Origin: Cyanobacterium sp. Dongsha4
GTDB taxonomy: Bacteria > Cyanobacteriota > Cyanobacteriia > Cyanobacteriales > Cyanobacteriaceae
Reading direction: 5' to 3'
Length of the DNA stretch: 64,000 bases
Assembly: GCF_036345015.1 (NCBI RefSeq)
Contig: NZ_CP084098.1
Location: 558,001-622,000, forward strand
Shown: piece after piece, positions 21,714 through 44,184 of the stretch
How positions within the stretch are numbered: the first letter of the stretch is position 1
Layout of the letters: every line of letters begins with the position of its first letter
Notes under the pieces: model-generated
What the model saw: the letters and a program-made list of their open reading frames with translations, nothing else
What the model was told of the DNA's origin: nothing
The model's database searches: none
Made by a program: the position numbers and the translations under genes

Positions 21714-22928
21714 TCATTTGATAATAGGAAAAAAATCTAATTCTTGATATACTTCTTTGAAAGTAGGATGCTTTCCCCTTCGAGACTTTAACACATATTG
21801 AAATTCAATAAACCAATCCATAGTCTGTTTTGAAACATAACCCTCGTAAACAATCAATTCTCCCAATAGTAGAGAAGAAGATGACTTAGCTTGTTTTTTC
21901 TTGATAAAATCTATTTGAGATGAACTAATTAAGTGAGCTTTTTGTAGATAGTCTCCAATATGCCATACTTGATTTGATTGGATAATTTCTGGCAATTCCT
22001 CGGCAAAAAATTCAATGGTTTCAGGAGAAAGTAAACCTGATTCTTTAATTATATCCCCCAGACAAACCCCATATTTTTCCTCTTTTTGTTTTTCAAGAAT
22101 TTGTTGTAACTCTTCGGCAGATAATAAACCAGCATGACATAACACTTTACCCAAAGGTAGGGATTGTAATTCCAAAATAGGATTATGTTGATAGATATTG
22201 AAACGATGCTGAATTACATGAATAAAGAAAGGTACACTATCTACTAAATACCTTTTCCATAGTCTTTTTGGTTCGGATAGTAAGCGGTATAACCATTCTA
22301 AACCTATATTACTCATCCATTGGGGTGATCTACCTTTGTAACCTGCCTCAAAATCGATGGTTGCTCCTATAGGTAAAAAAAGTTTAACATGAGGTAATTG
22401 ATTACGATATTTAACAATCCATTTTTCCTGTTTTGGAGCACCAACTCCGATAACTAAAACATTTGCCTCCGATTCATTAATTTTTTTAATGATTTCTTGA
22501 CATTCTGCCTCGTTGTTTTCAAAGCCAAAACTAGGAGATAAAGCCTCAACAACCATTTCTCTGCCTACTTTTTGGTTGATATTATTCTTGGCTTTCTCCG
22601 CTACTCCCTCCGTGCCTCCGAGAAGAAATATTTTAATGTCTTTGTTATCTCGATTGTAATTGTAGAAGGCAGGAAATAAATCTGAGCCCGATATTTTCTC
22701 TTTTATTGGTTTTCCCAAAAATTTCAAGGTATATTGAAGGATTTTACTATCACAAACCACATAATCAGCAAGATGATAAGCCTTAAGAAAACTGGAATCG
22801 GTTTGTAGTTTAACTAAATGATCTACATTGGGAGTTACAATCAAGCCTCCTTTCGTACTTAATTCGGTCAGTAGTTCTGCTAAAGATATATTATTAATGG
22901 TGATATTGAGGAAATTAATTTTTTCCAT
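21714..22928 (-). CDS. WecG/TagA/CpsF glycosyltransferase with MshEN-like C-terminal repeats
   Basis: 404 aa. Residues 1-235 are a WecG/TagA/CpsF (GT26) domain: TPNVDHL (catalytic Asp region, 32-38), SDLFP, LGGTEGVAEKA, GVGAPKQEKW (161-170) and GATIDFEAG (188-196). It would add a sugar such as ManNAc(A) to a lipid-linked precursor at the membrane face. Residues about 257-377 are not part of that family. They hold four copies of an LGxxL-x3-GLLS-x3-L pattern (from about 258, 289, 324 and 354), like the MshEN/GspE-N motif that binds c-di-GMP in ATPases such as MshE. The first Arg of the MshEN consensus is Pro here, so binding is not assured. Standalone gene. Confidence 0.82.
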   Translation of the reverse strand: MEKINFLNITINNISLAELLTELSTKGGLIVTPNVDHLVKLQTDSSFLKAYHLADYVVCDSKILQYTLKFLGKPIKEKISGSDLFPAFYNYNRDNKDIKIFLLGGTEGVAEKAKNNINQKVGREMVVEALSPSFGFENNEAECQEIIKKINESEANVLVIGVGAPKQEKWIVKYRNQLPHVKLFLPIGATIDFEAGYKGRSPQWMSNIGLEWLYRLLSEPKRLWKRYLVDSVPFFIHVIQHRFNIYQHNPILELQSLPLGKVLCHAGLLSAEELQQILEKQKEEKYGVCLGDIIKESGLLSPETIEFFAEELPEIIQSNQVWHIGDYLQKAHLISSSQIDFIKKKQAKSSSSLLLGELIVYEGYVSKQTMDWFIEFQYVLKSRRGKHPTFKEVYQELDFFPIIK

Positions 22929-23419: not shown

Positions 23420-24007
23420 ATGAAAATTAATAGTATCATATCCGTTTCAATAGCCTCATCAACAATATTACTGAGTTTACTGGGACTATCTTCTGATAAG
23501 GTCAATGCTCTGACACTGGCTATTGCTAATACGACAACGTGTAGTTTGAGTGATTTGGATGTTTCAATTGCTTGTGAGGGTGCTTTTGCAGGAAATGACG
23601 AAAATCAAGATTTAAGCGGACTATTCAATGTTAGCAATTGGACTCAATATGCAAAAGTTGACGAAGATAGCGGAACAAATAATGGATTAACTGTCAATGG
23701 CGGTGGCACTTCTGGCACTTGGAGTTTAACGGGCATAGATTTCAATTCCTATGATATTATGGCTATTTTGAAAGGAGGTCCTACTTTCAGTGCTTATCTA
23801 TTAAGTAGTGCAGGTCCTGATTGGAACACAGATGGTATTTTGAAAGGCAATTACAAACCTAGTCCGGGATTATCTCATTTTACTATATATACTTCTGCAA
23901 AAACTCCACAACCTGTACCTGAGCCTTTAACGATTTTAGGAACTGGAATTGCATTAGGATTAGGTGGTTTATTTAAAAGTAAACAGAAACAAAAATCAGT
24001 GGTTTAA
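23420..24007 (+). CDS. PEP-CTERM sorting domain protein, exported
   Basis: 195 aa. An N-terminal signal peptide (IISVSIASSTILLSLLGLSS, likely cleaved after VNA at about 30) is followed by a Gly/Asn/Ser-rich body with few charged residues. The C-terminus is a PEP-CTERM anchor: PVPEPLTILGTG (PEP at 167-169), a hydrophobic helix, then the basic KSKQKQK. This is the form recognised by cyanobacterial exosortases, one of which is encoded at 40.2-41.1 kb. The mature protein is expected at the cell surface or in the extracellular matrix. Body function unknown. Confidence 0.88.
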   Translation: MKINSIISVSIASSTILLSLLGLSSDKVNALTLAIANTTTCSLSDLDVSIACEGAFAGNDENQDLSGLFNVSNWTQYAKVDEDSGTNNGLTVNGGGTSGTWSLTGIDFNSYDIMAILKGGPTFSAYLLSSAGPDWNTDGILKGNYKPSPGLSHFTIYTSAKTPQPVPEPLTILGTGIALGLGGLFKSKQKQKSVV

Positions 24008-42441: not shown

Positions 42442-44184
42442 TTAAATATTAATTTCTAATAACTCTTTAAATTGCTGGAAGGGTAAAGCACGACTGAATA
42501 AGTAACCTTGATAATAATCGCAGTTATTTTTATGTAAAAATGAGAGTTCTGGCTCTGTTTCTACTCCTTCTGCAATAATTTTTAAGTTTAATTCATGAGC
42601 CATTTCTATTAAAGATTTTGTAATAGTGGCATTTTTTTGATTATTTTCAATTTTGTTGATAAAGATGCGATCGAGCTTTAAAATATCAAAATCTAAATTC
42701 TGTAAATATCCCAAAGAAGAATAACCAGTACCAAAATCATCGATCGCAATTTTTAAACCTATGTTATGCAATTTTTTCAACTTACGTGAAGCCACTTGAT
42801 GATTATTAACTAAGAAATTTTCACTTATTTCTATTTGTAATAAAGAAGGATTAAAATAATTATCTGCCAGAATTTTTAATATTTTTTGTTCTAAATAATC
42901 TTGATCAAACTGTCTTTTTGAAAGATTAATAGATAGTTGTAAATCAGATTTAAAATTTTTATGTAGATAATTAAATTCTTCACAAGCAGTATTTAAAATC
43001 CAATCATTAATAGTTTCAATGATACCTATCTCTTCTGCTAAAGGAATAAAAATTTCAGGAGAAATGTATTTATCTTCAGGATTATTCCATCTCAACAAAG
43101 CCTCAGCACCAAAAATTTTATTAGTTTTCATTTCAACTAGAGGTTGATAATAAATTTCTAATTCTTGATTATTTAAAGCATTGTGTAATTTTGCCTCTAA
43201 ACTTACCTGTTTTGCAGTAAAACTATGAAAAGCAGGAGAGTAGATTTTATATTGATTTTGTTCCAAATCTTTCACTGCTTCTTTTGCTTTATATAACAGT
43301 TGATCTATATTTTCTCCATGAATAGGATATAAACTAATTCCTATTTTAAAATCTATATATATTTCCTGTTGCTTATAAATAAATGGTGGAGTGATTTTTT
43401 CTAATAAATTAGTTGCTAAATCGATTGCTATTTGTTTAGTTTTGATAGGAGGAACAATTAACGCAAAATCATCTCCATCTAATCTTGTTAATATATAATC
43501 CTCATTTAAGTTAGCCTTTAATCTTTTTACCAAAGCCTTAAATAACATATTAGCAAGGTCTTGTCCTAACTCATCTCGAATTAAATAAAATCGACCAAAA
43601 TTCAAATATAGTAGAGGAATAAATTGAGATTTGTTATCAATATCTAAGTCCACTTGAGAATTTAATTTTTGATAAAATAACTCTAAAATACCATTAAAAT
43701 TTTCCACCAAAGATAGCTGATTTGGCAATTGAGTTAATTCATCATATTTTGAGATAAAATTAAGTCTTTCCTGCTGAGATGTCAATTGATGGGTAATATG
43801 ATTTATCTGATTATATTTTTGTAATGCAACACGAATAGTTGTAGCTAAATCTTCAGTTTTATAAGGCTTAACAATATAGCCATAAGGAGAGGTTTCCATT
43901 GCCCTATTCAAAGTTTTTTCATCAGCATAAGCAGTTAAATAAATAACTGGAACACATATGATTTGATTAATTTTTTTTGCCAATTCGATGCCATCAATAT
44001 CACCCTTAATTCTTATATCCATTAAAATTAAATCAGGTCTATTTTCTTTAATTTTTGGTAATACTTTTTCCTGACTGTTTGCTTTTCCGATTACTTGATA
44101 ACCTAAGTTTTCTAAGTCCAACTTAAGACTCTCAGCGGCAATAACTTCATCTTCTATGATGAAAATTTTAACGGGAATGTTCAT
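42442..44184 (-). CDS. response regulator with degenerate GGDEF and intact EAL domain
   Basis: 580 aa. REC at 1-120 (IIEDEV acidic pocket, phospho-Asp in LILMDIRIKG, YLTAYAD, IVKPYKTEDL). The GGDEF-like domain (about 150-315) has LDGDDFAL where GGDEF is expected, so cyclase activity is unlikely. The EAL domain (about 325-575) keeps the residues of active phosphodiesterases: EALLRWN, NLSKRQF, EISENF, DDFGTGYSSLGYL, KLDR, AEGVETEPE and QGYLFS. Predicted phosphorylation-controlled c-di-GMP hydrolysis in the cytosol. Same strand as and just upstream of GT4 and exosortase. Its histidine kinase is not in the window. Confidence 0.88.
   Translation of the reverse strand: MNIPVKIFIIEDEVIAAESLKLDLENLGYQVIGKANSQEKVLPKIKENRPDLILMDIRIKGDIDGIELAKKINQIICVPVIYLTAYADEKTLNRAMETSPYGYIVKPYKTEDLATTIRVALQKYNQINHITHQLTSQQERLNFISKYDELTQLPNQLSLVENFNGILELFYQKLNSQVDLDIDNKSQFIPLLYLNFGRFYLIRDELGQDLANMLFKALVKRLKANLNEDYILTRLDGDDFALIVPPIKTKQIAIDLATNLLEKITPPFIYKQQEIYIDFKIGISLYPIHGENIDQLLYKAKEAVKDLEQNQYKIYSPAFHSFTAKQVSLEAKLHNALNNQELEIYYQPLVEMKTNKIFGAEALLRWNNPEDKYISPEIFIPLAEEIGIIETINDWILNTACEEFNYLHKNFKSDLQLSINLSKRQFDQDYLEQKILKILADNYFNPSLLQIEISENFLVNNHQVASRKLKKLHNIGLKIAIDDFGTGYSSLGYLQNLDFDILKLDRIFINKIENNQKNATITKSLIEMAHELNLKIIAEGVETEPELSFLHKNNCDYYQGYLFSRALPFQQFKELLEINI

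What the first reader, a model, noticed from the sequence alone, without database searches (positions are those of the whole stretch)
21714..22928. WecG-type glycosyltransferase with a four-unit MshEN-like C-terminal domain
Residues 257-377 carry four LGxxL-x3-GLLS-x3-L units, like the c-di-GMP-binding MshEN motif of pilus and secretion ATPases, fused to a GT26 enzyme for surface polysaccharide. This would be direct second-messenger control of a priming or early glycosyltransferase. The first consensus Arg is replaced by Pro, so ligand binding may be altered.
Basis: partly seen in the sequence, partly recalled or inferred. Interest (0 to 1): 0.6.

Follow-up and report, generated by a model that had tools for sequence, protein, structure and literature searches.

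The report
Polysaccharide glycosyltransferase with doubled MshEN-like tail
A cyanobacterial enzyme that adds an early sugar to a surface polysaccharide carries a tail built from two copies of a domain that elsewhere senses the messenger c-di-GMP; the same tail has been attached again and again to early polysaccharide enzymes in cyanobacteria, but in this copy most residues that grip c-di-GMP are changed, so direct c-di-GMP control is possible and not shown.

Summary
ORF 21714-22928(-), 404 aa, is a GT26 (WecG/TagA/CpsF) glycosyltransferase with the TagA catalytic residues and membrane appendage, followed by four 24-residue MshEN-type units (258-281, 289-312, 323-346, 354-377). NCBIfam's MshE-related c-di-GMP profile hits twice, above its cut-off; Pfam MshEN does not. 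Profile search links the tail to MshE and PilF, and AlphaFold gives two four-helix bundles.

The tail is a recurrent cyanobacterial module. The same four-unit block is fused to GT26 enzymes in many genera, to phosphoglycosyl transferases, to GT4 enzymes and to a sugar aminotransferase, and it also occurs alone. This supports a regulatory or assembly role in early polysaccharide synthesis.

Direct c-di-GMP control is not established. All four motif Arg are replaced here (Pro, Cys, His, Leu), the spacers are 7 residues instead of 5, and pair 1 lacks the second Gln. By criteria published for PilF, 0 of 91 pair-1 sites and 3 of 91 pair-2 sites keep the needed residues; all three are in the window's own family, and the window copy is not one of them. 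MshEN-glycosyltransferase fusion itself is known (E. coli NfrB, GT2). This is a new variant: GT26, PGT and GT4 partners with a doubled, diverged module.

The parts
21714..22928 (-). Whole gene, 404 aa: GT26 glycosyltransferase with C-terminal tandem MshEN-like module
22194..22928 (-). GT26 catalytic part plus appendage, residues 1-245 (T32, D60, R215, R222, R226 aligned with TagA T37, D65 and the appendage arginines)
   Evidence: Pfam PF03808; alignment to TagA 7mpk; invariant columns; Foldseek to 5wb4/7mpk, TM-score 0.88-0.91 on the target
22194..22340 (-). Residues 197-245: region corresponding to the TagA C-terminal appendage (membrane docking, active-site Arg); AlphaFold helices 203-208, 211-218, 220-230, 232-242
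   Evidence: PMC6493773
22086..22157 (-). MshEN-type unit 1, residues 258-281 (PLGKVLCHAGLLSAEELQQILEKQ)
21993..22064 (-). MshEN-type unit 2, residues 289-312 (CLGDIIKESGLLSPETIEFFAEEL)
21891..21962 (-). MshEN-type unit 3, residues 323-346 (HIGDYLQKAHLISSSQIDFIKKKQ)
21798..21869 (-). MshEN-type unit 4, residues 354-377 (LLGELIVYEGYVSKQTMDWFIEFQ)
21780..22163 (-). Complete tail module, residues 256-383, two predicted four-helix bundles (259-318 and 324-383)
   Evidence: AlphaFold2 full length pLDDT 88.9, tail alone pLDDT 90.7

Best explanation
The gene encodes a GT26 glycosyltransferase that adds an early sugar (usually the second) to an undecaprenyl-diphosphate-linked precursor of a surface polysaccharide. 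Its C-terminal tail is a doubled MshEN_N-type four-helix module placed directly behind the membrane-docking appendage that completes the GT26 active site. I think the tail is a regulatory or docking module that controls activity or membrane recruitment of the enzyme, with a c-di-GMP-sensor ancestry. In this copy canonical c-di-GMP binding at pair 1 is probably lost and at pair 2 is at best weakened. Shown by computation: the domain identities, predicted fold, recurrence of the fusion, and purifying selection on the tail. Inferred: sugar and acceptor, that the tail controls the enzyme, and any ligand.
For: GT26 identity, catalytic residues and fold. In TagA the appendage toggles the enzyme between inactive dimer and active membrane-bound monomer and supplies Arg221 (PMC6493773); the tail follows it directly. 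Tail homology to MshE, PilF and PilB; only low-rmsd Foldseek hit in the list is MshE with c-di-GMP, 53 columns at 2.3 A (E not significant). The same module is fused to GT26 (many genera; two GT26 in G423), a separate GT26 type (L063, L109, L238), PGT (L106, L227), GT4 (L105, L107, L239) and DegT aminotransferase (L228). In the relative L117 the gene follows a polysaccharide co-polymerase/tyrosine-kinase gene and lies next to a GT2. The tail is under purifying selection, dN/dS 0.06 within the genus. The genome has 28 GGDEF domains, and 84 of 84 tail-bearing genomes encode GGDEF.
Against: No binding or activity data. Most GT26 orthologues work without the tail. The module also occurs on proteins with no polysaccharide link (TPR, FHA, pentapeptide, FAD oxidoreductase). 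The window gene is not in a polysaccharide cluster. GGDEF is near universal in cyanobacteria, so the co-occurrence is weak and confounded by phylogeny.
Confidence: 0.55

Rival explanations
1. Canonical c-di-GMP switch: one or both tandem pairs bind c-di-GMP and allosterically turn the GT26 enzyme on or off, as MshEN does in E. coli NfrB.
For: NF053729 above cut-off. Gly at motif position 3 kept in all four units; Gln at position 24 kept in units 1, 3 and 4. Sister species G014 keeps Arg in units 3 and 4 with both Gln and both Gly. NfrB precedent (PMC8669469). Arg9 and Gln32 changes in MshE cost no more than about fivefold (PMC5013675).
Against: Window has Pro, Cys, His, Leu at the four Arg positions; pair 1 second Gln is Leu; unit 3 turn Gly is His and position 21 is Lys; spacers are 7, not 5. 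In PilF GSPII-A, Arg38-type, Gln32-type and Gln61-type residues were all needed for measurable binding (PMC12002112); window fails.
Confidence: 0.22
2. The tail is a protein-protein docking or oligomerisation module that has lost nucleotide binding and assembles early polysaccharide enzymes at the membrane, or controls the GT26 dimer-monomer switch mechanically.
For: Family-wide loss of the second Gln to Leu/Trp, with new invariant residues (Thr at position 16, Phe) in even units. Same module on several early enzymes within one genome (G167: two GT26, PGT, GT4; G423: two GT26, PGT). Abundant stand-alone copies that could act in trans.
Against: Backbone-contact Gly and the first Gln of each pair stay conserved, as expected for a ligand site; all tail-bearing genomes encode GGDEF.
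Confidence: 0.3
3. The tail senses a different nucleotide or metabolite through an altered MshEN pocket.
For: Asymmetric, conserved re-modelling: Pro for Arg in odd units, Phe for Leu and Leu for Gln in even units, across the whole family. MshEN can bind cGAMP more weakly (PMC5013675).
Against: No ligand known and no direct test.
Confidence: 0.12
4. The tail is a decaying remnant in this genus.
For: Sister genome G014 has the gene split by a TnpB element; the window has lost two Arg that G014 keeps; the window clade sits on a long stem in the tail tree.
Against: Tail dN/dS between window and G014 is 0.06, similar to the catalytic part; high-confidence fold.
Confidence: 0.07

Closest known systems
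TagA/TarA (GT26, Thermoanaerobacter italicus; 5wb4, 7mpk)
   Same: Fold, catalytic Thr/Asp, appendage arginines
   Different: TagA ends after the appendage; no MshEN-type tail; substrate of the window enzyme is unknown
NfrB of E. coli (GT2-MshEN)
   Same: A glycosyltransferase for a surface glycan carrying a C-terminal MshEN domain; works like the proposed model
   Different: GT2 synthase with transmembrane helices and an intact MshEN motif; here GT26, no sign of the MshEN_C part, doubled and diverged MshEN_N
MshE N-terminal domain (5htl) and PilF GSPII-A/B/C
   Same: Four-helix domain of two 24-residue motifs; PilF also has several domains in a row
   Different: Arg and part of the Gln ligand contacts replaced; longer spacers; resembles the non-binding GSPII-A more than the binders in contact residues
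EpsG (TIGR03029), polysaccharide tyrosine kinase with an MshEN-like N-terminus
   Same: The tails hit the N-terminal part of this model (17 of 18); polysaccharide machinery partner
   Different: BY-kinase, not a glycosyltransferase

Membership tests
GT26 WecG/TagA/CpsF | Pfam PF03808 above cut-off | tested here: met
   192.2 bits vs 27.4
GT26 WecG/TagA/CpsF | Catalytic Asp65, Thr37 and appendage Arg of TagA | tested here: met
   D60, T32, R215/R222/R226 aligned and (nearly) invariant
GT26 WecG/TagA/CpsF | GT-E fold | tested here: met
   Foldseek to 5wb4, 7mpk, 1e-9 to 1e-10
GT26 WecG/TagA/CpsF | Transfer to undecaprenyl-PP-sugar | not testable with these tools
   needs enzyme assay
MshEN c-di-GMP receptor | NCBIfam NF053729 above cut-off | tested here: met
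   57.6 bits vs 38; 18 of 18 family members match
MshEN c-di-GMP receptor | Pfam PF05157 MshEN above cut-off | tested here: not met
   no hit in this ORF
MshEN c-di-GMP receptor | Four-helix bundle of two 24-residue motifs | tested here: met
   AlphaFold, two bundles; MshE 53 columns at 2.3 A, but Foldseek E not significant; profile to MshE 1.1e-6
MshEN c-di-GMP receptor | 5-residue spacer between motifs | tested here: not met
   7 residues in both pairs (282-288, 347-353)
MshEN c-di-GMP receptor | Arg at position 1 of both motifs | tested here: not met
   P, C, H, L
MshEN c-di-GMP receptor | Gly at position 3 of both motifs | tested here: met
   all four units
MshEN c-di-GMP receptor | Gln at position 24 of both motifs | tested here: inconclusive
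   pair 1 Q and L (fails), pair 2 Q and Q (kept)
MshEN c-di-GMP receptor | c-di-GMP binding | not testable with these tools
   needs ITC, MST or DRaCALA
NfrB-type c-di-GMP-activated glycosyltransferase | GT2 domain with DxD, TED, QxxRW | tested here: not met
   catalytic domain is GT26; NfrB model matches only the tail, far below cut-off

The most novel reading that the evidence does not exclude
Cyanobacteria have re-modelled MshEN_N into a doubled, plug-in module that is fused independently to the first-acting enzymes of polysaccharide assembly (PGT, GT26, GT4, sugar aminotransferase) and acts as a common control or assembly tag, with a changed or absent nucleotide ligand.
Probability: 0.35. 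Interest if true: 0.68.

Novelty: new variant of a known kind. Interest (0 to 1): 0.5.

Why it matters
Control of cyanobacterial polysaccharide synthesis is poorly understood, and known c-di-GMP control mostly acts on processive synthases such as cellulose synthase or NfrB. A shared module on the committed steps of lipid-linked assembly would give one handle on capsule and slime output in biofilm and bloom formers (Planktothrix, Arthrospira, Microcoleus, Calothrix). It is also a natural test of what changes a c-di-GMP domain tolerates.

Tried and rejected
Pfam MshEN search of the own genome: found PilB and a weak 470-aa ORF, not this gene. Foldseek of the tail gives no significant hit; MshE stands out only by rmsd and probability. 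Strict use of the relaxed MshEN motif of Wang et al. rejects most tails, mainly through polar residues at position 7, so it was not used alone. GGDEF co-occurrence (84/84 against 250/302, Fisher 2e-6) was considered and rejected as proof because lineage explains it. The idea that tail-less orthologues have the tail as a separate neighbouring gene was tested and rejected: no stand-alone tail within 6 kb in the 80 named loci. Decay of the tail was considered and largely rejected. The paper naming cce_1044 as a MshEN query could not be resolved further.

Full report
WHAT IS THERE. The stated ORF is real: 21714-22928 on the minus strand, 404 aa from ATG. Residues 54-227 match Glyco_tran_WecG at 7.8e-57. 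phmmer aligns residues 2-244 with TagA of Thermoanaerobacter italicus at 1.3e-29, with T32 opposite TagA T37, D60 opposite the catalytic D65, and arginines in the appendage region. These are invariant or nearly so over 23 relatives. The AlphaFold model (mean pLDDT 88.9, pTM 0.83) matches TagA crystal structures over about 200 residues.

THE TAIL. Four 24-residue units lie at 258-281, 289-312, 323-346 and 354-377. NCBIfam NF053729 (MshE-related c-di-GMP motif) scores 57.6 bits against a cut-off of 38 with two stretches; Pfam MshEN does not ring on this ORF. A profile of 53 related tails finds PilF (1.2e-12, four stretches), MshE (1.1e-6) and PilB (2.8e-6) among PDB sequences. AlphaFold of the tail alone has pLDDT 90.7 and shows two four-helix bundles. 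Foldseek on it has no significant hit; MshE with c-di-GMP is the one match with low rmsd (53 columns, 2.3 A, probability 0.38, E 8.8). The fold claim therefore rests mainly on sequence.

LIGAND RESIDUES. MshE binds c-di-GMP through two motifs RLGxx(L)(V)xxG..L...L..Q with a 5-residue spacer (PMC5013675). In the window the position-1 residues are P, C, H and L; Gly3 is kept in all units; Gln24 is kept in units 1, 3 and 4 and is Leu in unit 2; both spacers are 7 (and sequence). In the PilF GSPII-A study three restored positions (Arg of motif II and both Gln) were needed for measurable binding, and Gly3 of motif II for high affinity (PMC12002112). Scoring 91 distinct tails by that rule, pair 1 passes in none and pair 2 in three, all in the window's own family: G014 (same genus), L005 and L006. 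At pair 2 the window fails this rule only at that Arg, by Arg-to-Leu; it also has His where G014 has Arg in unit 3. Family-wide, odd units have Pro for Arg and keep Gln; even units keep Arg/Lys, have Phe for Leu and Leu for Gln, and carry a nearly invariant Thr. So the module is MshEN by descent with a re-modelled site. MshE itself tolerated Arg9 and Gln32 changes with at most fivefold loss (PMC5013675), so weak binding is not excluded.

DISTRIBUTION. The GT26 orthologue is in 54 of 386 sampled genomes at E<=1e-40, mostly without a tail. Fused orthologues occur in Laspinema, Phormidium pseudopriestleyi, Planktothrix, Planktothricoides, Microcoleus vaginatus, Kamptonema, Arthrospira, Calothrix and others. 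On the GT26 tree the tail needs six gains or losses, of which well-supported branches force at least two (quick tree with weak deep support). The ESFC-1 protein (L129) has two full modules, eight units. The module alone (160-290 aa) is common in cyanobacteria.

RECURRENT FUSIONS. The same module is N-terminal on a Bac_transf phosphoglycosyl transferase in G167 and G423 (L106, L227), C-terminal on GT4 enzymes in G129, G167 and G500 (L105, L107, L239), on other GT26 types (L063, L109 with half a module, L238), and N-terminal on a DegT aminotransferase (L228). G167 carries it on two GT26, one PGT and one GT4; G423 on two GT26 and one PGT. It is also on TPR, FHA, pentapeptide and FAD-oxidoreductase proteins, so it is a general module with a repeated, not exclusive, link to polysaccharide enzymes. 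I did not test the enrichment statistically.

CONTEXT AND SELECTION. In the window the gene stands alone beside a convergent SHOCT protein and a divergent PEP-CTERM protein; the divergent PEP-CTERM neighbour recurs in L116 and, by pattern, near L004. In L117 the gene follows a co-polymerase/tyrosine-kinase gene and is followed by a GT2 on the other strand. dN/dS between window and G014 is 0.04-0.09 for the catalytic part and 0.06 for the tail, so the tail is kept by selection. In G014 the gene is split by a TnpB-bearing insertion.

MECHANISM. TagA is an inactive dimer in solution; its C-terminal appendage folds on the membrane, breaks the dimer and brings Arg221 to the active site (PMC6493773). 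The tail starts about ten residues after that appendage. The simplest reading is that the tail gates or directs this step, by ligand or partner. That the tail has this effect is inference. NfrB shows that an MshEN domain can control a glycosyltransferase (PMC8669469).

VERDICT. Observation confirmed; interpretation partly supported; a new variant of a known kind (MshEN-linked glycosyltransferase). MshEN fused to a glycosyltransferase was already stated in 2016 (PMC5013675), and I could not read that paper's supplementary tables, so GT26 examples may be listed there. No paper found here describes GT26, PGT or GT4 fusions in cyanobacteria, within an open-access library only.

Noticed in passing
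L008 2281-3507 (-), genome G014: Same-genus genome has the GT26-tail gene split near codon 159 by an insertion carrying a 408-aa TnpB-like ORF with no transposase partner seen: a natural knock-out. TnpB named from the sequence, not from a family search.
   Followed up: partly
window 43255-43749 (-): A divergent GGDEF domain (81 bits) in a 586-aa ORF inside the window, about 20 kb from the gene.
   Followed up: no
window 23420-24007 (+): PEP-CTERM protein divergent to the GT gene; a PEP-CTERM neighbour also lies divergent in L116 and near L004.
   Followed up: partly
L129 5992-7482: GT26 with two complete tail modules (eight MshEN-type units), 104 bits to NF053729.
   Followed up: partly
L241, L228, L230, L240: The same tail module on an FHA protein, a DegT sugar aminotransferase and FAD-dependent oxidoreductases.
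   Followed up: partly
G000:C1:3279741-3280337 (L019): A second, tail-less GT26 in the window's genome, 30% identical, of a different subtype.
   Followed up: no
G156:C1:2495570, G191:C1:1991015: Degraded GT26 copies with several stop codons in two reduced genomes (2.8-3.0 Mb) that also lack GGDEF.
   Followed up: no
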